From Symbiodinium sp. CCMP2592 (Eukaryota; Sar; Dinophyceae; Suessiales; Symbiodiniaceae): a stretch of 64,000 bases of DNA. A model generated the notes under the pieces. It worked only from the letters and a program-made list of their open reading frames with translations, did no database searches and was not told the origin of the DNA. Below, piece by piece: positions 7,518 to 64,000 of the stretch (positions are counted from its first letter, which is position 1; every line of letters begins with the position of its first letter). Location: positions 1-64,000 of the forward strand of contig CAJNDT010006140.1 in assembly GCA_905221615.1 (NCBI GenBank). Direction: 5' to 3'. The position numbers were made by a program, and so were the translations under genes.

Positions 7518-10500
7518 TCATCGTTTAGGGGTTAGGGTAGCAGCAGCAGTGTCGTCGTCAGTTTGGGAGTAGTAACAGCAGCACTCGTAGCGGCCGAGAC
7601 CCTGAGCTCTTGTGGCCGAGGTTTCGACCTCGCCAACAAACTTAGGCATAGATTCTTGAGGCATTTCTCCTACAGGCACCGCGCTCCGCAAGCTTTGTTT
7701 CACAGTGGTTCTGGCAGCTTCCGGCGGTTCTGCGCTGTACATTGCAGAAGGTACCGAAGCTTTTAAACGGTGCCGGCCTAAACAGCTTCTGTGCCGAGGC
7801 GGGCTTTTCTGTACGAAGTGCGGCATCGCCACGCAGGCCGCTGCAACCGGCCGCGAGGTCTGACCTCGGGCACGCTTGCAAGATTGGGCGGTCCTCCTTT
7901 GAGCGCACCGACGAATTTTTTCGTGCTCGCATTCCGAGTGGAGTACATGGTGGACGCAGGTGCAGACAACACGTTGCTGCTCCCCGCGGTGTCCACGTGG
8001 CCAATATGCCTGGACCCAATGCCCTTGGCAAACCACACAATGATCCACAAAGTACTTCTTTAGCACCTTGGGATCCAGCTCATGACCTCCCCGTTCCTTG
8101 GGCACGAAGATGCCCGCCTCGACCAGGAGTGCCGTGAGCTCGTCACCATCGCGGTACAGCATGTAGCAGAGCCGGCGGGCGAGCTCCTGCACCGGAACTG
8201 CACTTGCTGGCACACACGGGACGAGGACATGCCTATGCCTCCATGCACCTTTGTCTGAGACTTATATCGTCGTGTGCGGCATGCGCGCGCCTTGTCCACC
8301 GGCGCTGTGGGAGAGGCCAGCACCCAGAAAGTCGTATATTCCGATTCCTCGGTGTTGGGACCTCGAGGCGTGCCGGTACCTTGGTGCGGGAACATTCTTC
8401 ATTGATGGATGCCTTCTACCTCCCTCAAACCCAGCATGTCGACTTCCGTCGTCGCGTAGGACATCTGCCCTCTCCCTTCCTCACCCCCACGCAAGTCAGT
8501 CTACTTGCTGCCGAAGGCACAGACATGAAACTTGACGTAATTCCCCTCGCTACGCTTCGCCCAGTAGTCGACTGCGGGAGAGCGCCCTTGCGTGCGAAGT
8601 GACCCGCTGTTCAGCAAGTAGTCGCCTTCTTCGCTGGGTGCATGCGTCATTTTGATCTTCTTACCCCAGTCAAAAATTTTCAGCCACTTTTTGTAGAGGT
8701 GCTGCAGGCCCGCCAGAGCCGACACCAAGCCGTCCTTGGTGCGATTGAGCTCGGCTTCCCAGGAGCCATGCCGCGCCTCGAGCGGGTTTGTCCCGCCGCC
8801 CGCGCCTGGACATGTGCCGAAGACGCCCGTCCAGAAGCTCGGAAGCCAGAGCTTGGTCGCCCCGCGCGCCGGGGCCTGGACGGTCTTGAAGATGTGATGC
8901 AGGTCAGCCACACTGGCTTGATCGAAGTACTCCTTCTGCAAGTATGTGGCGGCCTGCGTTGGCAAGTTCTCGAAGATGACCTGCCAAACAGCGTCGGCGA
9001 GCTGCACACTTGGCAAACACCTGTGCAGGACGCTGCTTTAGATCTCTGCTCTGTAGGAGTATGTGCGTGATCACTCCTGCAAGTGTTGATTTTTTGAGGC
9101 GCTTGCATGCAGCCCGCCTTCTCTGTCTAAGTTAGTCTTCTGTCTATACTTGATAAGACCCGACCCGTGCACCTCGTCAAATCGGACAAGTGCGACACGG
9201 CTGCCACGTTGGGGTCGCGTTTCTTTCTGCCCTTTGGCTTGGCACTGCCTTGTTGCGCCTTCTGAAACTTGCTCGGCAAGGTCTTGAACAAAGCCTTCTT
9301 GTAATGGAAATAATCACCGATCAGGCGCACGCCCGGGAAAACGTTGCGCCGCGCTGCCGCTATACCGGGTGCATAGTCAGCATGCACGTGCAAAATCTGT
9401 GCCTTCAGGTCAAAGCCAGCGACTTCCTGGCATAACCAGCACAAGTCCTCGAAGCAAGCTGTGACATTATCTTCCCTCTCGGTGTGCACGATGGCTTGCA
9501 TGATCGGCTGCGCTGTGCACGTGTGGGCCAGGTAGGTCTGCCGCCGTCCTTTCAACATGGCCGCGGTCGTGTTCCGCAGACGCGCACTGCTGGTTGCGAA
9601 GCAAAGAGTGATCACGCCGTAGTTGTTTGCCACGGCACCCATCTTCATGTCCACGATGAGTCTGATCCGGTGCTTGGCCGCATCGCGGAGCCGTTGCAGC
9701 ATTCCCGGGCACGAAAGTGGCACGTAAACCCTGCTGTCTTCCACCACGCTGCCGTGCGGCGATTTCAGAACAATGAGACGCGACAAGTCCTCCTCTTTGT
9801 CGAGATCTTGCGGCAAATCCGCCTCCCACGCTTTCACTTCATCCAGGAAAATCTGGATGGGTACCTTTGCGACATGCGAGGTCTGCTTGTTCTTCTGCCG
9901 CAAACGCCTGACAAGGCTGTGCACCTGCTCTGGCTCGCAAGCCAGGTCCAGGTTTGCACGTTCCACAGACTCACGTAGATTCTTCGTCGTGATGGGAACC
10001 TTTGCCTCGGTCATCTCGCTCACAACGTTCTGCAACTCCGCCGACAGCAACCGACCGCCCTGTGCCAGCTTTTTCTTCGCGTGCTCACCTCGATGGCTGA
10101 CGGTGAACTTCCCCTCGCCCGGGCCATCGATGCAGATGGTCACACGCGCAGAGAAAGTACACTTCGGCTTGCATTCGGCACAGGCGCCCCACAGCTTGTA
10201 CACCGACTGCCCAGCCTCGTTCACGAGCCGCTTCGTGGTGAAGGAAACACTGCACGCAGGCTTCGTCTTCAGGCAAAGACGCGCTACCCGCGTGGCCTCC
10301 GGGATGGTCCGGGGAATCTCCTCGTCCTCAAGAGCACCTCTGTTGGCCTCCTGGTAAATCCCTCGGCCAGCATCTGCCTGCGCCGATTGTTCTGGCTGTC
10401 TGGCGTTCTGGCTGGTCTCGCTCGTCTTCTCCTTGGCGGCCTTTGCGTCTGGCTTGTCCGCCAACGCAGGCTCGCGGTGGCCCTGGGCAGCTCCAGACGC

Positions 10501-10930
10501 AACGACGGCTTCAAAGCCCACCGCGCCGTGCACGCCGTGCAGCTCCTGCCCGCTGCCTGTTCCTAGACCGTCACGCGGCGCAGGAAACCCTTTCCTCATT
10601 CCCACGGCCATGGCGGACTCCTCCAGGAAGCCACGGAAGAATTGTAGCGGGATTGCCCATTGACGCGCTGTACTCCGAGCCTGACTCGACATGCTTCCCC
10701 ACCGATGCTTGACGAAGACAGGCCACGCGCCGGGGCGTATGTTCAAGACGCCGAAGTCGTGGCGTTCGAGATATTGCCCCGTTGCCACGAGCTTCTGGTA
10801 TAGGCATCCTCCCGCTTCACGGCATCGCCCGAGTACACATTGCGAAACACAGGCACATTGCGCCCTGCCACATCGGCATAGATGACGGGCCCCGGAGTTG
10901 CTCGCAAAAGCTTGACTGCCACCTCAGCTT
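7518..10930 (-). CDS. MULE (Mutator-like) transposase, split into several segments
   Basis: The longest segment (9127-10788) contains a WRKY/GCM/FLYWCH-like zinc finger (C203-x2-C206 and H232-x3-H236), the first catalytic Asp in LIVDMKMGAV (D380) and the second in HADYAPGIAAAR (D471), followed by VFPGVRLIGDYFHYKKAL, a MULE hallmark. The next segment (about 8501-9003, probable acceptor GTGTGCAG^CTCGCC) holds TNPLEARHGSWE with the third acidic residue. The last segment (7518 to about 8190, probable acceptor GGTGCAG^GAGCTC) carries VCTCVHHVLHSECEH, a CxCx8CxH SWIM finger as found at MULE C termini. An upstream segment (about 10812-10930, IYADVAGRNVPVFRNVYSGD) is in another frame with no obvious intron between, so a frameshift or assembly error near 10810 is possible. 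Order and motifs make the identification strong. Whether the gene is intact is unknown. Confidence 0.82.
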
Positions 10931-11342: not shown

Positions 11343-14300
11343 CTACATTATAGGCCTGGACATGCCGCCCCTGCCTTCGTGGGTCCAGAAGTAGGACAGC
11401 TTCTCAAACATGGAGTTGAGTGTGCCACCATCGGCATAGTATGCATCTTGCGAAGCTTCGTGCATCGCGCCTCGGGCCTCGAGCAGTGCGGCCTGCCCAA
11501 CTGCATCTAGCTTCCAGACAAGCTCATCACCGTGTAGGGGCACCTTGTGTCCGACATGCACGATTACACGCTGGAAGATCTCCGCCATGAACTCAACAAA
11601 CTTGTCCCGTAGCCCCGCCGGATATGATAGCTGACTGCCACGCCGCCCGGCAGAAAACACACAGCCTGGCTAGCAATAACTGCTACAGTGCTGCACAGCA
11701 TATGTGCAGATCAAGCAAACCCGGCAATCAACAAACAGTGCGGCTTGCAGCTGCAGGCCGAGTCGCGGTTCGCGAGTCCGATCTTGTGCCGCGCCTCGCT
11801 TGGCGCCCACCACGTGCTTAGGACGGACGGCTGCTGCAGTAGCACCATACCAATGTTGGTCGTCTCGAAATGCACACCGCAGTCGACTCTCTCTTCGTGG
11901 CCCGCGGTCTTCCGAGCCTTCCCGGGCCGGGCTAGGACATCGGCTTGCGTGTCCCAGTCGTAGCGCCCTCCGTGTGCTGCTTCCTGAAGTCTGGTCAATA
12001 CGATGTGCGAGTCCTTGGTAAACTTGCCCGACTTGGCATATTCCGGGCAGAGAAAGGCAGACCCTTCGGGGCCAACCAACAACCCGTGGCCGTCGCCTTG
12101 CTGCAAGCGCGCATTGAAAGCTGCGTGCGTGGACTCGGTAATGAGATGGTACTCCATCTCTCCCGGCCCCGCAAGCCACTGACTCACTCGCTCCTCCGCC
12201 TAGACGTGGACGAATGACGAATCTACGACCGGCACTTGTACCCTGGCTGACTCTGGCTCTGACACGTAGACACATAAACACTTTCACTGCGCAACAGCCA
12301 AGATGCCGCAGCACGCTTGAAGGCCTCCCGCACTGTCTTCATCACAGGCGACTTACCGGTGCCTATGTCAGTCACCACCTGCGCCCAGTAGCGATGGGAC
12401 AATGTGTAATCGGACCACTGCACGGACAGATTCCGATGTAGCAGTGAGGACACGAAAGCTTTGAAGGTCTCCAGCAGCATGGTCGAGGACAAAGCAACTA
12501 CACGTGCAAAGGCTTCCACGTAAACTGCCAGACGATAGTCTGCCAGCCACCACAGCGGCGTGAAGACATCGACCTCCTCCGGCGCTGTCAGTGTGCCTTC
12601 TCGCACAGCCCTGACCCCCGCCTGCAGTCGGCTGAGGCATTGCTCGAACGTGAGCTTTTCCAGGACCGAACTTCGGGCAGGCACGTCCCGCAGGGCCTCT
12701 GCAATTGATCCAGTACTCACCGCAGCAAGGAAGGCTACCACATCCTCTTCGAACAAGCTTTCCGCGTCTTCCAAACCCATGTCTTGGCCACGACTCAGAG
12801 ACTGCATGGGACTTGCAGGCGGTGGGAGCACCCCGTCGACACCAGCAGCACCGCGACCGCCACTGGGCCAGGATGGTTTCGTGTCGACACTTGTTGGCTG
12901 GCAGCTGCTCTGGCCTGGCCTGGGGCCGACATTGGATGGAGGTGGAGGTGACACTAGACTGCTGTTGCTCGTCCGGTCGCATGGCGGAGGTGGAGGCGAG
13001 GAGTTGCCTCCTTCTGCGGCGGCCTCTCCCGATGAACCCAGTGTATCCTGCTCTGTGGGCACAGGCCGAGACGACACACTTCCCGCAGCCCTCGCCAGAA
13101 CCACATAATATAATTCGCCGTCCATTGCGCCAGATCTTTGCTGCTCCAAAACCTTCTCCTCGCTCACGTCCTTGATCTCCTGGTCATTTGCGAGCAGCCA
13201 GCCGCCGTCCTCACCGCGCACTGCGGCGTAATAGTGCCCCGCCGCCGGGGACTCACCTCTGTGGTACACGGCTGCTACCACTGTGTAGCGATTTCCCTGC
13301 ACATCCACTGTCTGCGGCATGCCCACCGTTCGTCTGTCCTTGTGCTGCACGAACTGGCCATTGTCCAGAGTTTCTGTGCGCCACCGCTTCAACACAGCCA
13401 ACAATACACTTGGTGCCTGTTCAACACGTAGTTCTCTGGCAGGCACGGCCGTGGACTCGCAATGGGGGCACTGCCACGGTCGATCCAGGTATTTCACATC
13501 CTCCGGCGCCAAACTCGAAGAGAAGTAATTATCCACCACGGCTTGCAGATCTTTCAAGCCACTTGGCAATTCCATCTGCATCTCGGACATTGCTGTCGCA
13601 GCACCGTGGGGAAAGGCTTGCCTGCAGTCTGCACAACGAAGGTAGAACTGTTCCAGCCCACACGTAAAACCTGTCAAACCCGCAGATTCGGCAACTCCAC
13701 AAAGGAACTCGAAGCTGTCCTCCTGCACTCCATGATACCACCGCTGCAGAATGGGCTGCGGCCTTGTAACGGTCGCGGCCGTCATTCCACGCCATACCTG
13801 CCAAAGCTCGCTGGCCACATCATTGCTCTCCTCCGTCAGCTTTTGCCGCCAAAGTGGAGAGCTATACAGGCCTTGCAGTGCAGCGTTGATGAAGCAGCTG
13901 TGCCCCACGTTTTCCAATCCACCGCGCTTCGCTCGGTCTTGGACTCTGCTCTCCAGCGGGCAGAAGCCCACCCATGTTGTTGGTCCCCGCTGGCGCTTGA
14001 ACGGGACCGGTTGGGCCAAGCGGTAGGAGTCGTTGATCGGCCACAGATGCGTTTGCTTGTACGGTAGTGCCTCCACGACCATCCGATGCTCGCCTTCGTA
14101 ATCTTTGAACTCCTGCACGCATCCCGGGACAAAGGATTCTCCGAACATGCCCCAGCCGCGGATCTCGCCCCCGGCTGCCAGCCAGCTGCTGCCCGGCGAA
14201 CAAGCAAGGTGGCGCACCTCCATGGTCTTGACTCGTTGCAGCACCCGTTCAAGTGTTTCCACGTCTCGATAAAGTAGAACACGATCGCCCAAACTAGGTT

Positions 14301-14898
14301 CTGCATCTCGGAGAGGCTGCTTCCTTGGCAACCCTCCCGCTGGGTCTATAAGTGGACCCGGCTCGAGCGACTTCTGACTCACTGCCCGTGTCTGCACCAT
14401 GGCTGCTGGGATCCTGCGAGAGAGTTGCTGCGCCGCAATTACGAGTCTACACTTTGTCCAGTGAAGCTTCAAAGCACTATAGCCACGGATGCGAAATTCC
14501 AGCGCAAGCATGTCCATGCACGGTCTGGCCGGGCTGCGTTCCCCTGCTCCCACAAGCCGTCTTCTGCATGGTAGAACCATCCCCTCCCAGGCCTCCGACC
14601 AGCTCGCGCTCTCAGCACATGCACGGACCTCAGAACCGGCTCCAGTCCGACATGCGTGTCTGCAGCATCGGCCTAGCACATATATTCCTGGCGGCTACAT
14701 ACCTTCGCCAATCCCTTCGCGCGCAGCCTCAGACTGCCCTCCGTCTAAGACGGCTTCGCAAGGTCCCTCTGCATGCAGGACTTTGTCGTCGTCCTTTATC
14801 AGGTCCTGATCGACGTCGTCGTCGTCGGGTTCTCCTGCTGTTGCCAGTGCCCATTCCGGGTCCCTGTTAGTCTTTCCTCGCCCATGTTCACCGGACAT
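11343..14898 (-). CDS. Ubiquitin-specific protease (USP, peptidase C19), multi-exon
   Basis: Exon 1 is 14703-14898 (ATG; MSGEHGRGKTNRD, then acidic DDDDVDQD) with a GAAG^GTATGT donor. Exon 2 starts at 14405 (CCCAG^CAGCCATGG, phase-consistent) and runs to about 12280. It holds the Cys box GLENVGHSCFINAALQGL (nucleophile Cys about 13896), a YHGVQEDSFEFL box, a CxxC...CxxC zinc ribbon (CADC, CPHC) and the His box AAGHYYAAVRGEDGGWLLANDQE with the catalytic His and Asn/Asp. All USP catalytic elements are therefore present. A Ser/Pro-rich linker follows, then a helical region. Exon 3 (about 12199-11738, acceptor CGTCTAG^GCGGAG) and exon 4 (about 11640-11343, LRDKFVEFMAEIFQRVIV) extend the protein in the same direction. 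It is adjacent and co-oriented with the MULE transposase and may be the cargo or N-terminal part of the same element. USPs remove ubiquitin; the substrate here is unknown. Confidence 0.8.
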
Positions 14899-55699: not shown

Positions 55700-56188
55700 G
55701 TTATGCTTCGTCCTGCCGATCCTGCAGCGACGGCACATCCAGAAGCTTCCACAGGTGGCGTGCAAAGCCACCACCGCTAAATCCTTGTCCCCACGCCGGA
55801 TTATGAACGTCGGTGCAGCCCTGGGTCCCCCCAAACCCCTAGTGCAAAACGGGTAAGGGTTGGTCGAGGGTTCGGTTCTGGAAGCTATTTCGGAATACAG
55901 CTTACACTGTCGCATCCAACACCAGGTTTGACACTTAATTTTTTGTTTTGGCCTAAAATGACTGGTGTCCTGTCGTTGGCAGATCTTGTCTTAGTGGGCA
56001 CTTGACAAAAACCATGATTTTGAAGCTGATGGGGTTGATCTGTCCAGAGACTTGAATATGGCTGAAATCACAGCTGGAGCACGCACTCTGATCCAACTTC
56101 TAAAATTGGACTCCTGGTTAGGGCCTAATCTAGTAGACGTCTCTTCGAGCGCCCTTGTTCTGAAAGACTCTGCTTCTTTCGCATCCCG
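55700..56188. other. No supported gene
   Basis: Mixed unique sequence. Open minus frames to 55915 lack family similarity. Confidence 0.4.
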
Positions 56189-56446: not shown

Positions 56447-56497
56447 AGACTTCAACTATTCAAAGAGTTCGGGTTTAGGATTTAAAGTTTTAAGGGG

Positions 56498-57062
56498 TTT
56501 AGGGTTTAGGAGTACTGCCAAGTAACAAACAAAACATCACAAAACACAGCAAACATGCCATGAATCACACATTGAGCTGCTTCAGGTGCTGATTTCACGC
56601 TGCCTGCCCCGAAAAGGCACGTTTTGGAGGTGAACGGGGCTGTGAAAGGCCACCATAGGGGAGCAACCGGGAGGGACAGTGGAGGGACAGTGGGAGCGAC
56701 AGTGGAGGGACAGCGGGAGCGACGGGAGCGACGGGAGCGACAGCGGGAGCGACATTCGGAGCGACAAACGGAAAACGGGAGGGACAGGGAGCGACAGTGG
56801 AGGGACAGTGGAGGGACAGTGGGAGGGACACTGGACAACCCAAGCTGAACCCATAACAAAAAACGTGCGTCTAAGCCCAATTCTTGCCTCAACGTGTCAT
56901 TCTTCGCAAAACCTATCCAAAATCTATCCTTGCCCTCGAAAAACATGACAGTTTAGGGTTTTTCGGGTTTAGGGTTTAGGGTTACTGCAAAAAGCACAAA
57001 ACATCACAAAACGCAGCAAACATGCCATGAATCACAAGTATTGGCGCTTAAAATGCTGATTT
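56498..57062. repeat. Minisatellite flanked by a 467-bp-spaced direct repeat
   Basis: AAAACATCACAAAAC...GCAAACATGCCATGAATCAC occurs at about 56531 and 56998 (467 bp apart). Between them, 56670-56835 is a purine-rich GGGAGCGACAGT/GGAGGGACAGT minisatellite. Reading frames over it are Ser/Arg/Pro-rich artefacts. Confidence 0.88.
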
Positions 57063-57439: not shown

Positions 57440-57791
57440 GAATCACATGGGATGAAATCATTACAAACGAGTCCTAAACTAGCACAAAAAAATATGCTGC
57501 TTTGTGATTTTCTGGAAAAGGGCTAATATTCTGGATGCTGAAGCAAGAGCCATCGACAAATCTCAGAACGAATGATTTGCGCTGAACACGGAACACGACG
57601 AGTCCTTGTCCTCAAAATCATATGTTTTACCCTAAACCTCCAACGAACCCGGCCTCCGGGTAGGGGACCCAGGGCTGCACCGACGTTCATACGCCGGATG
57701 TACCGGCACGGGGACTAAGGAGTCGGCGAGGCGGCCGTGATCGCCTCCACGACGCTGCTCGGCCTTCGGCGTCCGATTAGAATGCAACGGC
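57440..57791. other. No gene; flank of the retroelement terminal repeat
   Basis: Unique GC-rich sequence. I cannot place the exact end of the element; B2 ends at 57792 and shared sequence stops there. Confidence 0.45.
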
Positions 57792-58615
57792 CGTCTGTCG
57801 TGTGGTCCCAGAACTGTTAAAATCATCTGAAAGATATTTGAACGGTATTCCGTTGGAATCTCATCGAAACATATAAGTAATAAAATCTCGATGGAAATCT
57901 CAATCGGAATATATTGCGAGATATAATTCCGCAACTGCTCACCAAAGGATCGCGCATGTTTTTCACACCTCCCTCGCACTGCTCGGATCTTGGACGTCGG
58001 GGGTAAATCGATGGATGGCAGAGGCAACACTCTCCGACTCATCCACACCCGAAGGCATCACACCATTTCCCCCCAGGGTAGGGCGGGTGGGCTAAAAATC
58101 AAGCTTGATGCCCGACTTCGGATGTAGTCGCTTCACACAATTCCATGCGTGCATGAAAGTGCAAAGCATGTAAATTGGAAAGGTCGAAACACAAATGAAA
58201 TATCTCAAACTGTGTGACGACAAATTGAAGAAATGTTTTCTCGAGCTACCGCGAGGTGAAACATACAGTTCAGGGTTCGCTACGTGCCTACGCCCCACAC
58301 AACAGACAGAAGTATCCGCACGCAGACACTAGACGTCTGTCGTGTGGTCCCAGAACTGTTAAAATCATCTGAAAGATATTTGAACGGTATTCCGTTGGAA
58401 TCTCATCGAAACATATAAGTAATAAAATCTCGATGGAAATCTCAATCGGAATATATTGCGAGATATAATTCCGCAACTGCTCACCAAAGGATCGCGCATG
58501 TTTTTCACACCTCCCTCGCACTGCTCGGATCTTGGACGTCGGGGGTAAATCGATGGATGGCAGAGGCAACACTCTCCGACTCATCCACACCCGAAGGCAT
58601 CACACCATTTCCCCC
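57792..58615. mobile_element. Retroelement 3' end: split direct repeat B1-A2-B2
   Basis: A 282-bp sequence occurs at 58334-58615 and, in the same orientation and nearly identical, at 57792-58073 (offset 542). Between them is a 260-bp unrelated segment (58074-58333). On the element's coding (minus) strand the order is RT stop, B copy, 260 bp, B copy. The first copy begins one base after the RT stop codon. This matches the B1-A2-B2 layout of PAT/Ngaro-type tyrosine-recombinase retroelements; the matching A1 would lie upstream of Gag and is not in the window. No recombinase gene is visible here. A nested or tandem LTR arrangement is the main alternative. The repeat's open frames are not evidence of a gene. 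Confidence 0.75.
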
Positions 58616-58616
58616 G

Positions 58617-60842
58617 TCAACTGTGATGCTGAGCATACACCTTCATCAGATCATCGAGAGCAGCAAAGGAGAAACATGGGTCCTTGATGAATCGCAAGAG
58701 CTCATCAGGGAATGATACACCTCCCTGGTCAACTGCACTGAAGGATTCGCATAACTTCTTCGATTCGCCCCTGGAGGGCAGATCGGCCGGGTTCGATTTT
58801 GATGGCACCCTGTCGTACCAAGCACCGAACGGAAGAACTGCATCCATCGCATTGATCACTGCCATAATCCTAAACATGGCCTCTGACTGGCTCGATCTCT
58901 TGATGAGCGTGGCCAAGGCGGAGTTGTTGTCCACAAAGACGAAGCCCTTTCGAGCGCATAACCGCTTTCCGAAATGCCATCTAGCGCACAAGACAGCGAA
59001 GAGCTCTATCTCGCATATGATCTGCTCCCCAACGGTCAGAAGCCAATGTTGCCGGATGTCTTCAGGGATGCATCCAGACAGTGCGAACTTCTCCTGCGTC
59101 TCAAGGTCACATAAGAAGACTCCCCAGAGAGCCTGATCGCCTTCAAGAGAGCCGTCAGTATACACGATCACAGGTTCACGAGGATCGGTCACTCGCAAAG
59201 TCCTGGGCTTCATCGCACAGAAGACGGAGCAAAGCATGTCGTTGAGGCGAACAATGGCCTCCGAAGAAAACGTTGCCGGCCTCGCAGCCAACTTCGAATA
59301 CTCCCTCGCAATAGGCTTCAGAGCGGAGCCCAGGACGAAGCCACTGGCGAAGTTCAAGAGTCCATGAAGCGAAGTGGCAAGCTGCTTAACGTTGGAATCC
59401 TGCTTGGTCAGTTGCTGGGCGATCGACTTGATGCGGTCAACTCGGCCTTCTTTGTTTCTAACCTCAAGAGATCCTTGGTGGAGACTGGAGAAGTCGAACT
59501 CCGCCCCCAAGGCAACCCACTGGCTCGCGAAATCCACAGCCTTCTTCCCGGTGGTGGCGTGAATCCACCCCAAAGCGTTGAGCAGCCGGGAGAACGAATC
59601 CGAAGCGTTAGCGGCCAATGGAACAATCTCGAAGGTCGGGTAATCGTCCACATAGACTGAGGTGACAAGTCCCAGCTTCACCACTGCTACGTGCCACAAT
59701 GCACGGGAAATCTTGTTGAAGGAGAAAACCGAACCCGACCCACCAAATGGTAGACCTCGGGCCAGGTAAAAGGTCCATTTCGATTCTCGTGATGGCATGG
59801 CAATGACAGCGTATTTCAGCGAACATGTAGCCACCGGCACTTGCTTGTAGGCTTTAGAGAGGTCAAGACATCTCCCAACCCAATGCGCATCTCTGCTCTT
59901 AGGGTGCCACTCGCCTTCGAGGACCTCACCCGATTGAAGGGAAACACGCACCTTCTCCTTGTCGCTCCAAACCCTCGCGACGAAGAGAGCCATGGAGGCG
60001 ACGAAATCCAGGTCGTGAAGCTGCAGCAAGGATGTGGACCCGAACGATGCATTGACGCCAGAGTCCCTCAAGTTGTCAATGACACGCGGCTTTCTTGCTT
60101 CTCCCTGCAAGAGCAGGAATCTTTGACTTGGAGTCCACTGGCTGGTTCCCAACCTCTCAGTCACTTTCTCCTCGCAATCGAAAGGCCCCTCGAGAAAACC
60201 CAATCGGCACTCTTCGTCTGTCTCATCATTCAAGATGGTCAGCTCCTCCTGGGACAACTTTTGAGGCGGCTTTGAGAGGAGCTCACGGCGCCTCCAAATG
60301 GCCTGCGAGTCAAGCTGCTCGGGAGTGGCCCTCATGGGCTTGGGCCTGGTCGGAAACAAAGGAGAAGGAGCCTCGGCCCCCACAAGAGACACTCCCTCTT
60401 CCATGAAGCGGCAAACCTCCTTGTCCGGAAAACCAGTTTCCTCGATCAGCTCTCGAAAGAGCTGAAGACACTTGCCCCCCGTGATGGGGTGGTCTTCGCC
60501 AGTCCCAAGCTCGTTTGCCCTCGCCTCAATGCTCGAGAGGGTCTCATGCCTCATCTTCGCAATCTCCTCTGGGCCCTTGGTAGCCAAGTCAAAGATCGCC
60601 CTTCTTATGCAATCAGGGACGGTGCTTGCCGACTCAGCGGGATGCTCCAGTTTGGTTGCCAGATCAAAGTGTTCCTGCATCGTGTGATACACTCCCCAAG
60701 CCTTACTGGGATTCGAGGAGAAGACTGGTCCTCCAACCTCGCCTTCCCCCGCCACATTGGAGGGGCAGTCAGAGAGGTCGGGCCAAGCAAAGTGCAGGTC
60801 ACCAAAAAAACCGCCAGATCCCGGGGCGGAAGATTGTGCCAA
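58617..60842 (-). CDS. Retroelement ORF3: reverse transcriptase-RNase H
   Basis: 741 residues from ATG 60842. The first 200 residues are unassigned. Then RVIDN (253-257, fingers), RT motif A CLDLSKAYKQV (325-335), motif B PFGGSGSVFSFNK (365-377), motif C SVYVDDYPTFE with YVDD at 397-400 and a TTGKKAVDF...LG region. RNase H follows: VYTDGS (Asp 562), EIELFAV (Glu 611), VFVDNNSA (Asp 638) and NPADLPSRG (684-692, Asp 687), so all four acidic residues are retained. No integrase or protease domain is seen. The start overlaps the end of ORF2 by 238 bp in a different frame, implying re-initiation, frameshifting or splicing. The stop lies one base before the terminal repeat. The ORF is intact, so the copy may be young. 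Confidence 0.9.
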   Translation of the reverse strand: MAQSSAPGSGGFFGDLHFAWPDLSDCPSNVAGEGEVGGPVFSSNPSKAWGVYHTMQEHFDLATKLEHPAESASTVPDCIRRAIFDLATKGPEEIAKMRHETLSSIEARANELGTGEDHPITGGKCLQLFRELIEETGFPDKEVCRFMEEGVSLVGAEAPSPLFPTRPKPMRATPEQLDSQAIWRRRELLSKPPQKLSQEELTILNDETDEECRLGFLEGPFDCEEKVTERLGTSQWTPSQRFLLLQGEARKPRVIDNLRDSGVNASFGSTSLLQLHDLDFVASMALFVARVWSDKEKVRVSLQSGEVLEGEWHPKSRDAHWVGRCLDLSKAYKQVPVATCSLKYAVIAMPSRESKWTFYLARGLPFGGSGSVFSFNKISRALWHVAVVKLGLVTSVYVDDYPTFEIVPLAANASDSFSRLLNALGWIHATTGKKAVDFASQWVALGAEFDFSSLHQGSLEVRNKEGRVDRIKSIAQQLTKQDSNVKQLATSLHGLLNFASGFVLGSALKPIAREYSKLAARPATFSSEAIVRLNDMLCSVFCAMKPRTLRVTDPREPVIVYTDGSLEGDQALWGVFLCDLETQEKFALSGCIPEDIRQHWLLTVGEQIICEIELFAVLCARWHFGKRLCARKGFVFVDNNSALATLIKRSSQSEAMFRIMAVINAMDAVLPFGAWYDRVPSKSNPADLPSRGESKKLCESFSAVDQGGVSFPDELLRFIKDPCFSFAALDDLMKVYAQHHS

Positions 60843-62410
60843 TCACGAACCGTGAATGCCACCAAGACGGTGCGTCGACCCTGGGCCGGCATAACCTGAT
60901 GCGTGAAGCGGGTTTGAAGAAAGCACGGCTCTGCATGAACGGGCAGGGTTTGACCCTTCACACGCACGCCTCCATTGGAAAAGCGGGAGAGCGGAATGAT
61001 GACGTTGTAGAACTTGTGGTCGTTGTGAGCATCAACATGTTCAGGGCCATAGAAGTCGTCGAAGACGGCCAACGAAGAGTACACGGCACCTGGAGCGAAG
61101 TGCTGAACAATAGCCGCGAGAAGGCGGCACACGTGTGGCATAGATCGAGACACACTGTGAAGGCCCACCTGGGAAGAGAAAACGTAGGCACCACAGGTCC
61201 ATGCCAATCCGTCAGCAGTGGCCCCACGACGGGAGCGCTGAGAGGGCTCCAAGAGATTGACAAGTTGCAAAACATCATCCTGCGCGCAGGTCTTCTGCTG
61301 GAGCAGCGACCAAGCAAGCTTCTCGACCGCATGGGCATTAAGAGGAGCGGGAGAGTTCACAGGAGCCGGGCCAGTGCACACAGGCCAAGAAGGTGTAGCA
61401 GAGCCTGTGGCCGAGGCAGCATCCTTGGAAGGCACCATGTCGGGCAAAGGCTTGGCATCAGGATGGGGCGCCCGGTCGGCCCAAACAATCTGCCGGAACT
61501 CAGGGATTAGGGTGGCATGCTTTAGGGTCTGGGCGCCTGCAGCAGCAAGCGTGTCCAATCGAAATTGCCGAGTGGTTTCACGGAACAGAGCCGGACTCAC
61601 AGCAGCAGATGCCGCCTGTACGAGCTTTCGGCAGAAGACACGAGGGTATTGAGCCTCAGAAGAGGTATCGAAGACCCAAGTGCCCATACGCATCTTTTGT
61701 CCATAAGGAACATGAGAATGCCTCCCGTCGCAGGGGACCGAAAGGACCTCGAAGACCTTGGGCGTGCATCGAAGGCGTGTGTCCTTGCGGCGAGTTCCGC
61801 CGAACATGCAAAGGGAGAGGGACACATCCTGAAGCTCGAAGTACCAATCAGCGAATGCGGGACAAGAATTGTCACGCGCGAATCGGCAGATCAAAGCAGC
61901 GAGAGTGGCCCATGTCCACGCCCGCGCAGGGTTCTCGATGGTGACCAACGCGTTGACTTTCCAAGCAGCAAACAATGCCCGCACGCAGGTGCCATACACA
62001 GCGTTGGCAGCCTCGACCCGGAGACGTTCATGAGGCCTAAGATCAGGTAAACCCAAAGGGAACTTGGCCGATCGAAGCGGTCGTGGCTGTGGCACGCCCT
62101 GCGCCCGCAACGCAGAGCTGATGGGCAGCTGACGAGCGCGACTTCCAGTGCCACACGGCAGTCCAAAATGGAGCCAAAGGGGCCTGAGCTGATGAATCAT
62201 ATCGTCAATCAAGCGGTGCGAAGAAATTGCGCCCAAATCGATGGGCAAGCACGACACTTTGGGCTCAAAACGGTTTCCATGATGATCAATAGGAAAAACC
62301 TGCCATCCTTGAGAGGCGGCGGCATGCGAAAGAGAGGCCGAGCCACAACACAGCTCGACGAAAATTGCAAAGGGAGCGGCGTCAGTAGTAGGCAGGCCTG
62401 AGCGGCCTAG
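60605..62410 (-). CDS. Retroelement ORF2: C5-methyltransferase-like domain fused to a TET/JBP-like 2OG-Fe(II) dioxygenase
   Basis: The frame is open from the codon after the Gag TGA (62410) to 60605, 601 codons plus stop, and is in the Gag frame. The first ATG-independent part already holds a SAM-binding motif I (FVELCCGSASLSHAA, from 62362), followed by a PID-type acidic strand. Next come HFGLPCGTGSRAR, matching the catalytic PC motif IV, and VTIENPARAW, matching motif VI (ENV) of cytosine-5 methyltransferases, then CMFGGTRRKDTRL. After a Ser/Pro/Ala linker the C-terminal part has EHVDAHNDHKFYNVIIPLS with the HxD iron ligands (about 61039-61031), NGG, FTHQVMPAQG with the distal His, and RRTVLVAF with the 2OG-binding Arg: a complete HxD...H...R set. 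The spacing and the PLS.F.NGG...H.V.P..G.R pattern resemble the TET/JBP subgroup. Substrate is inferred, not shown. Confidence 0.72.
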   Translation of the reverse strand, partial: LGRSGLPTTDAAPFAIFVELCCGSASLSHAAASQGWQVFPIDHHGNRFEPKVSCLPIDLGAISSHRLIDDMIHQLRPLWLHFGLPCGTGSRARQLPISSALRAQGVPQPRPLRSAKFPLGLPDLRPHERLRVEAANAVYGTCVRALFAAWKVNALVTIENPARAWTWATLAALICRFARDNSCPAFADWYFELQDVSLSLCMFGGTRRKDTRLRCTPKVFEVLSVPCDGRHSHVPYGQKMRMGTWVFDTSSEAQYPRVFCRKLVQAASAAVSPALFRETTRQFRLDTLAAAGAQTLKHATLIPEFRQIVWADRAPHPDAKPLPDMVPSKDAASATGSATPSWPVCTGPAPVNSPAPLNAHAVEKLAWSLLQQKTCAQDDVLQLVNLLEPSQRSRRGATADGLAWTCGAYVFSSQVGLHSVSRSMPHVCRLLAAIVQHFAPGAVYSSLAVFDDFYGPEHVDAHNDHKFYNVIIPLSRFSNGGVRVKGQTLPVHAEPCFLQTRFTHQVMPAQGRRTVLVAFTVRDWHNLPPRDLAVFLVTCTLLGPTSLTAPPMWRGKARLEDQSSPRIPVRLGECITRCRNTLIWQPNWSIPLSRQAPSLIA

Positions 62411-63676
62411 TCAAGAGTGACGGCACTCGCAGTACGGCACTCCCTTCTTGAGGCAGTCCTTATGCCAGCAATTGTGCAAGCCGCGGTCGCATCGGGCTTT
62501 GGACTGATCAGGGCACTTGCCGTGCTGAAACAACACGCATAAGAACTGGCGAGTCTTGGGCATGCGCGAGACACAGTCCTTAGGCATCTCCTTCAGCAAC
62601 TGCAGGATCTCGGCACGCTTGGGGTCCACCTGAGCATCATCCCACTTGCGCTTCTGACCGCCTTTGTCGCCACGACCTTTGCCGCGACCACCACGGCCTT
62701 TGCCTTCGCGGTCACCTTTGCCATCGGCCTTGCCACCGCGATCGCCCTTGTCGCCTTTGCCTCCACCGGTGGCCTGCGGAAGGTTGGCCAAGCAAACATT
62801 GACACGAGTATGGGTCTGCAGGCGCTCGATGAAGACATCCAGGGGGGGTTTGACGCCCCCGATGACCTTAATGGAGCCACGACTTTCCTGAGCAAGAATC
62901 TGCCACAGCTCGCGGTCAGCGTTCAGAGCCTGGGCAATGCTGGTGAACTTGTGACCCGGTGGAGGGTCACGAGTCACTGAGTCAAACAAGTAGGTGTGCC
63001 ACGCCTCCTGGGCAGCAAACGACATGAGGCCAATTTGGTCGAAGGCCAACGCCCGTCGGGTGAAGGCCTCCCGAAGCCGAAGTTCTCCTCGAACGTCGCA
63101 TTCCAGGTCGGAGTGTTTCTTCGATATCTTCAAGCCACCTTGAGCATCAAGCGTAACTTGTTGAGAGGGTTTGTCGCTGGAAATTTCCAACGCTCTTGAT
63201 GGGCACTTATGCGGCGGTAGGTAGGTGAGCGTCCCGGAATCGACCATGGATTGGATTTTGTCGATGAGGCTGTGCGCCGGTTCCACCCGTTCGGTGAAAA
63301 CTATCCCGGTTAGCCGAGCCTTTTGATTCTGTAGGCGAGTCAAGCGCTCGGCCAAAGGAAGCTCTCGAGGCGGGTCAAGAGAAGAACGTTCCACCCGTGA
63401 CTTGAGATCAGACAGGGCAAACGTGTTGGCCTCGAACCACAATCGTCGAAGGTCAGGAAGCTCGCCCGGGGTGAGGTCACGAGACAAGAGCTTCTGTACC
63501 GCCTGAATGAGAGGGGTGTCATCGCCACTCTGCGGGCTGACAGCACAGATGTACGCCAGCTTTCCAAAGGTTTTGATCCCTGCGGCCTGAAGCGACTTGA
63601 CGAAACCATCATCCATACCGATTTCTCGGGCTCTGGCCAAGAACTCGGCTTCCGACTCAAGCAGAGTGGAAGTCAT
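62411..63676 (-). CDS. Retroelement ORF1: Gag-like protein with C-terminal Cys/His zinc-binding region
   Basis: I chose ATG 63676 (MTSTLLESEAEFLARAREIG), giving 421 residues; the open frame extends ten codons upstream without an ATG. The N-terminal two thirds is helical with no recognised fold. A Gly/Lys/Asp/Arg-rich linker (GGKGDKGDRGGKADGKGD) follows, typical of nucleic-acid binding Gag tails, then CVLFQHGKC, CDRGLHNC and YCECRH, forming CCCH-like fingers. The ORF ends TGA CTA G, a context known for stop-codon readthrough, and the downstream frame is open, so a Gag-ORF2 fusion is likely to be made at low level. Confidence 0.8.
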   Translation of the reverse strand: MTSTLLESEAEFLARAREIGMDDGFVKSLQAAGIKTFGKLAYICAVSPQSGDDTPLIQAVQKLLSRDLTPGELPDLRRLWFEANTFALSDLKSRVERSSLDPPRELPLAERLTRLQNQKARLTGIVFTERVEPAHSLIDKIQSMVDSGTLTYLPPHKCPSRALEISSDKPSQQVTLDAQGGLKISKKHSDLECDVRGELRLREAFTRRALAFDQIGLMSFAAQEAWHTYLFDSVTRDPPPGHKFTSIAQALNADRELWQILAQESRGSIKVIGGVKPPLDVFIERLQTHTRVNVCLANLPQATGGGKGDKGDRGGKADGKGDREGKGRGGRGKGRGDKGGQKRKWDDAQVDPKRAEILQLLKEMPKDCVSRMPKTRQFLCVLFQHGKCPDQSKARCDRGLHNCWHKDCLKKGVPYCECRHS

Positions 63677-64000
63677 GGCGTCCGTCCGAGGATCAGGCTT
63701 GAACAAAAACGTGTCACTCCAGGCGAAGGCTCACGACGGAGGCAGCAAGCATGGCTAAAACACAGATGCGCTGCATCAATGTTTGCGTCTCTGCTCGACC
63801 TTTCCGTGTCTAATCCCCCAGGACTCGCGCCAATCTGCACTGTTCGCAGAAGATATCCTCGCGCGGCTGCTGGGGGTCGAAACTGCACGCATCATAGTTG
63901 CTGTTCAAGGGTCTCCCGCATCTCAACAATGAGGCAGGGACCATGACAGCGTGCACAATGGAGGAGATCCGATGCCGGACGAAGGTGCCCGTCTCTGGCG
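63677..64000. other. 5' leader of the retroelement
   Basis: No homology to the 260-bp A2 segment (58074-58333) was found by eye, so the element's 5' terminus lies beyond the window. No supported gene. Confidence 0.5.

What the first reader, a model, noticed from the sequence alone, without database searches (positions are those of the whole stretch)
60605..62410. Retroelement ORF joins a cytosine-methyltransferase-like domain to a TET/JBP-like oxygenase
Seen: one uninterrupted frame carries motif I, PC and ENP motifs of C5 methyltransferases, then a complete HxD...H...R 2OG-Fe(II) dioxygenase core with a TET/JBP-like pattern. Known: dinoflagellate DNA is rich in 5-hydroxymethyluracil and methylcytosine, dinoflagellate retrotransposons have been reported to carry DNA methyltransferases, and TET/JBP enzymes oxidise methylcytosine or thymine in DNA. 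Inference: the element carries both the writing and the oxidising activity and could mark or unmask its own copies. I do not know of a described fusion of this kind.
Basis: partly seen in the sequence, partly recalled or inferred. Interest (0 to 1): 0.93.

Follow-up and report, generated by a model that had tools for sequence, protein, structure and literature searches.

The report
Retrotransposon fusing DNA-methylating and DNA-oxidising domains
A jumping element in a coral-symbiont type of alga (a dinoflagellate) carries, in one protein with its copying enzyme, a domain shaped like enzymes that methylate DNA and a domain shaped like enzymes that oxidise such marks; related copies keep both, which suggests that the element chemically edits DNA for its own benefit.

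The parts
63810..63998 (-). C-terminal end of a tyrosine-recombinase-like (YR) ORF that runs out of the window
   Evidence: Same C-terminus as the 682-aa ORF of L010; in that ORF R377, K406, H496-x-x-K499, H522/H523, Y534 are invariant in 5 of 5 aligned relatives. No relevant Pfam or PDB match, so the name rests on the motif, whose meaning is recalled.
62411..63676 (-). gag-like ORF (stop-to-stop 62411-63730, first ATG at 63676), ending in a Cys/His-rich stretch (by eye)
   Evidence: 98% identical to P0022, 66% to P0026, 35% to P0028
62407..62413 (-). in-frame UGA CUAG between gag and pol: probable leaky stop for a Gag-Pol fusion
   Evidence: one UGA with gag and pol in the same frame in 24 of 24 loci with adjacent gag and pol ORFs, CUA behind it in 18
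61436..62362 (-). C5-methyltransferase-like domain (ORF residues 17-325)
   Evidence: AlphaFold2 pLDDT 85.9; Foldseek/VIA top rows C5-MTases; phrog_757 DNA methyltransferase in 3 of 19 relatives, best 8.5e-7; C86, E159 in 22 of 22 loci
60806..61393 (-). TET/JBP-like 2OG-Fe(II) dioxygenase domain (ORF residues 340-535; H458, D460, N463, H504, R513, F519)
   Evidence: AlphaFold2 pLDDT 89.8; CcTet/NgTET1 top, JBP1/TET in BFVD; Tet_JBP weak match, E 0.071, over the core; catalytic residues kept
60804..60810 (-). homopolymer (A7 on +, T7 on the coding strand) at which the window copy loses the pol frame
   Evidence: 2OG and RT in frame in 12 of 14 clade loci
60605..60805 (-). out-of-frame tail of the finding's ORF; not element protein
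   Evidence: protein match to P0022 ends at residue 535
58620..60800 (-). reverse transcriptase and, by motif, RNase H part of pol (ORF 60842-58617; homologous from 60800)
   Evidence: RVT_1 4.9e-6, below curated cut-off; 97% to P0022 over 237 aa, 75% to P0021 over 738 columns. RNase H is named by eye (YTDGS, VDNNSA, SNPADLPSR); no Pfam match.
58334..58615 (-). direct repeat B1, 282 bp, directly behind the pol stop
   Evidence: 100% identical to B2
58103..58334 (-). repeat A2, 232 bp, between B1 and B2
   Evidence: 99.1% identical to A1 and to A2 of copy L010
57792..58073 (-). direct repeat B2, 282 bp; 3' end of the element
   Evidence: right boundary shared with L010

Best explanation
A DIRS-like (YR) retrotransposon of a Symbiodinium, about 8.5 kb, encodes a tyrosine-recombinase-like protein, gag, and a pol polyprotein MT-2OG-RT-RNase H (sequence shown; YR and RNase H named by motif). 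Gag-Pol is most likely made by read-through of one conserved UGA (inferred). The MT domain most likely puts a methyl group on cytosine C5 and the TET/JBP-like domain oxidises 5mC (or, in this type of genome, thymine) in DNA that the element handles: its own cDNA or double-stranded circle before the recombinase inserts it, or its resident copies (inferred). The gain would be DNA that host silencing or nucleases read as non-foreign or non-silent. The window copy has lost the joint frame at a T7 run. Sub-claims: architecture ~0.95; C5-MTase fold ~0.9; TET/JBP rather than another 2OG family ~0.8; both domains enzymatically active in a working element ~0.6; a 5mC-then-oxidise relay on its own DNA ~0.35.
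For: Relatives carry MT, 2OG and RT in one frame. Folds: MT; 2OG. H458-x-D460; H504 and R513 at H+9 as CcTet His376/Arg385; Asn at D+3 as TET2 Asn1387; Phe/Tyr at R+6 as CcTet Phe391 (PMC11040006). Catalytic residues: MT E19, G23, D42, P85, C86, E159, N160, P161 in 22 of 22 loci (7 further loci with short MT matches not counted); 2OG H, D, N in 29 of 29, distal H 28 of 28, R 27 of 27 with the column. Pooled dN/dS MT 0.07, 2OG 0.18 (10 copies), RT 0.08 (8 copies). 150 scored 2OG matches in the genome, 149 without a stop inside (MT not checked for most). gag-UGA-pol in 24 of 24. Repeats and shared ends.
Against: No Pfam C5-MTase match in any of 19 MT members. Tet_JBP never reaches its curated cut-off (34.9 bits; best 25.5, window 12.8); for the window domain SHQ1-like_CS scores slightly better (0.05 against 0.071) and one member matches Asp_Arg_Hydrox at 0.0065. 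TM-scores of the best Foldseek matches are low (0.3-0.5). A Burkholderia 2OG oxygenase and a Pseudomonas P4H follow CcTet at almost the same E-value, and AlkB-family structures are within 1 Z unit of NgTET1. The residue that contacts the base in TETs (R+8: His/Arg) is Val/Ile/Thr/Leu here. MT is very divergent in some relatives (L034, L035). CpG transitions between copies are not raised more than other changes at CpG, so no mark of 5mC was seen. No RNA structure behind the UGA (z -0.09). No expression data.
Confidence: 0.6

Rival explanations
1. Anti-silencing: the two domains act separately. The 2OG domain erases host 5mC from resident copies (as proposed for TET-bearing fungal transposons), while MT binds or methylates other DNA.
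For: PMC12730594 proposes counteraction of silencing for fungal TET+ DNA transposons (passages); MT and 2OG occur in two orders, so a fixed geometry is not needed.
Against: The domains go together: 6 of 6 loci fetched because they matched the ORF over its MT part only also carry 2OG (L023-L028).
Confidence: 0.25
2. Thymine hydroxylation: the 2OG domain works like JBP and makes 5-hydroxymethyluracil, the base for which dinoflagellates are known; MT is independent.
For: 5hmU MeDIP in Breviolum was ~2x enriched in multimapping reads, read there as repeats and transposons (PMC11071213, passage); Asn at D+3 could pair with C or T (inference); the R+8 His/Arg of 5mC enzymes is absent.
Against: No JBP structure is among the 50 rows shown (whether one is in the library was not checked); a paired cytosine-methyltransferase-like domain points to cytosine.
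Confidence: 0.2
3. Hitch-hiking or structural domains: MT and 2OG are non-catalytic nucleic-acid binders kept for folding of Pol.
For: Profiles are far from known enzymes; MT motif VI reads ENP, not ENV.
Against: The catalytic residues are kept even between loci whose domains differ at up to about half of nonsynonymous sites.
Confidence: 0.12
4. The 2OG domain is an AlkB-type repair or RNA demethylase, or another 2OG hydroxylase, that protects the element's RNA or cDNA.
For: ALKBH5 and FTO lie within 1 Z unit, ALKBH2/3 within 1.3; a P4H is near CcTet in Foldseek; Asp_Arg_Hydrox 0.0065 in one member.
Against: Tet_JBP is the family matched by most members and no AlkB family appears; the AlkB second Arg at R+6 (recalled motif RxNxTxR) is Phe/Tyr/Trp here.
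Confidence: 0.1
5. The T7 run is a programmed -1 frameshift site (U UUU UUG) by which MT-2OG is joined to RT.
For: A -1 slip there gives the RT frame (sequence).
Against: In 12 of 14 clade loci 2OG and RT are in one frame.
Confidence: 0.03

Closest known systems
SymbioDIRS-Dnmt3 retrotransposons (de Mendoza et al. 2018, PMC5890265; passages read)
   Same: Symbiodinium DIRS-like elements with a cytosine-methyltransferase domain sharing an ORF with RT, a separate tyrosine recombinase, A-coding-B-A-B repeats; purifying selection on DNMT like that on RT
   Different: Their domain is a Dnmt3; the present MT has no Pfam C5-MTase match. The word TET does not occur in that paper's main text. Here a 2OG domain is fused too.
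TET/JBP-bearing DNA transposons of fungi, Kyakuja and others (PMC12730594; passages read)
   Same: Mobile elements that encode a TET/JBP dioxygenase
   Different: DNA transposons and Helitrons; [quoted passage not shown] Here a TET/JBP-like domain is inside Pol of a retrotransposon, beside an MT domain.
CcTet (Coprinopsis), NgTET1 (Naegleria), TET2
   Same: Fold, HxD...H...R, aromatic at R+6, Asn at D+3 as in TET2 (PMC11040006)
   Different: R+8 base-contact His/Arg absent; structural-alignment identity only 11-16%
M.HhaI / M.HaeIII / DNMT3 C5 methyltransferases
   Same: Fold, PC of motif IV, Glu-Asn of motif VI (motif names recalled)
   Different: ENP for ENV, motif VIII unclear, no Pfam match; an invariant C227-x3-H231-x-H233 of unknown role
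Phage sets of C5-MTase and TET/JBP that hypermodify DNA
   Same: Writer and oxidiser in one genome, as PMC12730594 describes for phages (passage)
   Different: In phages separate genes, with glycosyltransferases; here one polyprotein, and no glycosyltransferase was seen

Membership tests
C5 DNA methyltransferase fold | SAM-dependent C5-MTase fold | tested here: met
C5 DNA methyltransferase fold | motif IV catalytic PC | tested here: met
   P85 and C86 in 22 of 22 loci
C5 DNA methyltransferase fold | motif VI ENV | tested here: inconclusive
   E159-N160 in 22 of 22 loci, but ENP, not ENV
C5 DNA methyltransferase fold | motif VIII QxRxR | tested here: inconclusive
   R207 22 of 22 and K209 20 of 22 may stand for it; not aligned to a known enzyme
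C5 DNA methyltransferase fold | transfer of methyl to cytosine C5 | not testable with these tools
   needs an assay
TET/JBP superfamily | HxD...H...R on a double-stranded beta-helix | tested here: met
TET/JBP superfamily | nearest structures are TET/JBP | tested here: inconclusive
   CcTet and NgTET1 lead, but ALKBH5 is within 1 Z (10.4 against 11.0) and a P4H near in Foldseek
TET/JBP superfamily | Pfam Tet_JBP at curated cut-off | tested here: inconclusive
   12.8 bits for the window domain, best relative 25.5 (9e-6), cut-off 34.9
5mC-oxidising TET enzymes (substrate class) | Asn/Asp at D+3 and aromatic at R+6 | tested here: met
   N 29 of 29; F/Y in 26 of the 27 loci with the column, W in one; positions from PMC11040006 (CcTet itself has Gly at D+3)
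5mC-oxidising TET enzymes (substrate class) | His/Arg at R+8 contacting the base | tested here: not met
   V, I, T or L in 27 of 27 loci with the column; hence not filed as a 5mC oxidase by membership
DIRS-order (YR) retrotransposon | reverse transcriptase in pol | tested here: met
   RVT_1 4.9e-6 in the window (below cut-off); PF00078 precomputed for P0005, P0006, P0023-P0026
DIRS-order (YR) retrotransposon | RNase H behind RT, no DDE integrase | tested here: inconclusive
   RNase H by motif only; no RNase H or integrase family
DIRS-order (YR) retrotransposon | tyrosine recombinase | tested here: inconclusive
   R, K, HxxK, HH, Y invariant in 5 of 5 upstream ORFs; no relevant Pfam or PDB match
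DIRS-order (YR) retrotransposon | split repeats A-coding-B-A-B | tested here: inconclusive
   B-A-B at the 3' end in 8 of 10 near copies, window included (not L015, L018); the upstream A only in L010, 1 of 8 copies with the 5' end in reach
SymbioDIRS-Dnmt3 | Dnmt3-type domain detectable with Pfam DNA_methylase | tested here: not met
   0 of 19 MT members match a C5-MTase family at E <= 10; no DNMT tree was built

The most novel reading that the evidence does not exclude
Pol of these elements is a self-contained DNA hypermodification enzyme joined to the reverse transcriptase: as cDNA is made, the MT domain methylates cytosines and the TET/JBP-like domain oxidises them (or thymines), so that each new copy enters the genome already carrying a non-canonical base; with many such elements per genome, they may be a main source of unusual bases in dinoflagellate DNA.
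Probability: 0.25. Interest if true: 0.93.

Novelty: new variant of a known kind. Interest (0 to 1): 0.8.

Why it matters
Retrotransposons that bring their own cytosine methyltransferase were already a puzzle. Here the opposite (or next) enzyme of the same pathway appears to sit in the same polypeptide, in many loci and under purifying selection. That makes a direct test possible: does a retroelement modify its own cDNA to pass host control, and do such elements contribute to the unusual bases of dinoflagellate DNA? It also gives a retrotransposon with a TET/JBP-like domain, where a survey of fungi found none, and a gag-UGA-pol read-through design kept across divergent relatives.

Tried and rejected
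Pfam on the whole 601-aa ORF finds no relevant family, PDB by sequence nothing, and PDB by profiles A3, A4, A5 nothing relevant. Viral contigs: no relative with the ORF or A2. I first took P0008-P0020 for MT-RT elements without 2OG and labelled the RT tree so; six loci fetched because they matched the ORF over its MT part only (L023-L028) all carry 2OG upstream of MT, so those labels are unsafe, and that tree has several long branches. What remains is that the MT-2OG-RT order is one clade (100/100), which the 2OG tree also shows. A -1 programmed frameshift at the T7 run: rejected, see rivals. RNA structure behind the UGA: none. CpG decay as a footprint of 5mC: CpG transitions 1.65x GpC, but other changes at CpG 1.86x, so no specific signal. 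The gag dN/dS is not used: the gag of L017 is not in place (another element's gag lies on its other strand). dN/dS against L019/L020 was not computable for MT, 2OG and RT (synonymous sites saturated). The SHQ1-like_CS, DUF4388, Xol-1 and BTBD8_C Pfam hits were taken as chance; Asp_Arg_Hydrox 0.0065 in one member was not followed up. In Foldseek's list for MT, 5 of 50 rows are not methyltransferases of this kind. Literature: searches (open-licence PMC only, TET JBP + dinoflagellate + reverse transcriptase, gave 0 papers): their listings show no description of an MT-TET-RT fusion; I opened passages or sections of four papers only (PMC5890265, PMC11071213, PMC12730594, PMC11040006), and subscription papers and preprints were not searched. 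The read-through papers were seen as a listing only.

Rows dropped: the MT residue counts use 22 loci with an MT match of at least 200 aa; L030 and L032-L037, with shorter, split or weak MT matches, were left out, so their MT residues are unchecked. The 2OG counts use 29 loci, of which L021 and L026 are truncated and lack the last columns.


Full report
WHAT IS THERE. On the minus strand the frame 62410-60605 is open for 601 codons and holds, in order, the motif-I-like FVELCCGSA, PCGTGSRAR, ENPARAW and an HVDAHND...THQVMPAQGRR core. This confirms the observation. The first Met is residue 71, behind motif I, so the whole methyltransferase-like domain cannot start at an in-frame ATG.

THE ORF IS PART OF A LARGER GENE. 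BLASTP against P0022 ends at residue 535 (92% identity over 6-535; other relatives end between 527 and 550), while the ORF 60842-58617 resumes the match in another frame (97% to P0022 over 237 residues, 75% to P0021 over 738 columns). Between them lies a T7 run (coding strand). In the window's own genome (G000, 1.098 Gb, 5383 contigs) 74 places match the ORF. Of 14 loci of this clade examined (L009-L022), 12 have 2OG and RT in one frame; 8 of them have a frame of 1261-1267 codons with MT, 2OG and RT (L012-L017, L019, L020). The exceptions are the window copy (L009) and the decayed L021. So the finding's ORF is a frameshifted half of pol, and its last 66 codons are not element protein. One genome match to that tail (C480, 66%) is at L022, where 2OG and RT lie in another frame.

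HOST. Contig lengths of C942 (111,279) and C1266 (68,615) equal those listed for P0022 and P0026, named Symbiodinium sp. CCMP2592. The host is inferred from this.

THE ELEMENT. Eight copies at different sites share a left end (L010 position 618) and eight a right end (L010 about 9118), hence about 8.5 kb. Within it: an ORF of about 682 aa with R377, K406, H496xxK499, H522/H523 and Y534 invariant in 5 of 5 aligned relatives, read as a tyrosine recombinase; Pfam and PDB profiles give no relevant match. Then gag (439 aa stop to stop), one UGA, and pol. RT is RVT_1-like; RNase H is named by motif only. Behind pol lie B1 (282 bp), A2 (232 bp) and B2 (282 bp; B1 = B2 at 100% in the window); this B-A-B is seen in 8 of 10 near copies, window included, not in L015 and L018. 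An upstream A copy (99.1%) is seen in L010 only, 1 of 8 near copies whose 5' end lay in reach. This resembles the DIRS-like elements described for Symbiodinium by PMC5890265 (passages), but the 5' repeat is not general here.

GAG-POL READ-THROUGH. In 24 of 24 loci with adjacent gag and pol ORFs these are in the same frame and separated by a single stop, always UGA, followed by CUA in 18 and CUAG in 17. In some of them gag itself is broken further upstream. Left out: L013 (gag frame broken at the junction), L017 (no gag in place), L033, L036, L037 (other layouts). Twelve of the 24 belong to the window clade and L029-L032 are near relatives of each other, so the number of independent lineages is smaller. 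UGA-CUA is a known read-through context (recalled; papers holding the words are in the listing). No RNA structure stood out behind the stop. Read-through is thus likely, not shown.

SELECTION AND NUMBER. Pooled pairwise dN/dS (Nei-Gojobori, pairs not independent) among 10 near copies (8 for RT): MT 0.07, 2OG 0.18, RT 0.08; against L022 0.06, 0.13, 0.06. The genome search with a related 2OG domain scored 150 of 4816 candidates, all 150 matching, 149 without a stop inside; with the window's own 2OG 150 of 3724 were scored, of which 14 (51-100% identity) are the window clade and the rest at most 41% identical. These are lower bounds, and most matches were not checked for MT or for domain order.

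TWO ORDERS. The window clade has MT-2OG-RT; it is one clade on the RT tree (100/100) and the 2OG tree (100/100). Twelve loci, L023-L032, L034 and L035, have 2OG before MT (with RT where the frame or locus reaches it). L023-L028 were fetched because they matched the ORF over its MT part only, and 6 of 6 carry 2OG, so the pairing is the rule in that small sample. L033/L037 carry both in one very long frame without an RT match.

MECHANISM. Shown: anatomy and conservation; predicted: folds. Inferred: Gag-Pol by UGA read-through; MT writes 5mC; 2OG oxidises it, or thymine; the target is the element's own cDNA, circle or resident copies. No CpG decay specific to transitions was seen between copies, so no footprint supports heavy 5mC on these copies.

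COMPARISON. PMC5890265 describes DNMT3-bearing DIRS and DNMT-bearing LINE elements in Symbiodinium; the word TET is absent from its main text. [quoted passage not shown] PMC11071213 reports 5hmU MeDIP enrichment in multimapping reads of Breviolum. I found no description of the present fusion in the listings of the searches named under Tried and rejected. I rate it a new variant of a known kind: a DIRS-like, methyltransferase-bearing element with a fused TET/JBP-like domain.

Noticed in passing
MT domain, ORF residues 201, 227, 231, 233 (61810-61712, - strand): C201, C227, H231 and H233 are invariant in 22 of 22 loci: a possible metal site, not known to me from C5 methyltransferases.
   Followed up: no
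L033 and L037: One very long open frame (2388 and 1946 codons in view) with 2OG and an MT match but no RT match; Pfam finds nothing in the L037 ORF. A different kind of element or gene.
   Followed up: partly
L036: A 1328-codon frame with a partial MT match before 2OG and no RT match in it.
   Followed up: no
L014 oriented 8294-9663: Three B and two A repeats in a row instead of B-A-B, as if a tandem or circle junction had been inserted.
   Followed up: no
window 56468-57062: TTTAGGG-like repeats and pairs of direct repeats about 470-490 bp apart (D3-D5); telomere-like sequence inside the contig.
   Followed up: no
window 55796-55830 and 57663-57697: 35-nt inverted repeats, 94% complementary, 1.8 kb apart, the nearer arm about 95 bp beyond the 3' end of the element.
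   Followed up: no
window 12223-14679, - strand: 818-codon ORF that by eye resembles a ubiquitin-specific protease (GHSCFINAALQGL, HYYAAVR); no search was run.
   Followed up: no
window 9127-10788, - strand: 553-codon ORF that by eye resembles a MULE/FAR1-type transposase; no search was run.
   Followed up: no
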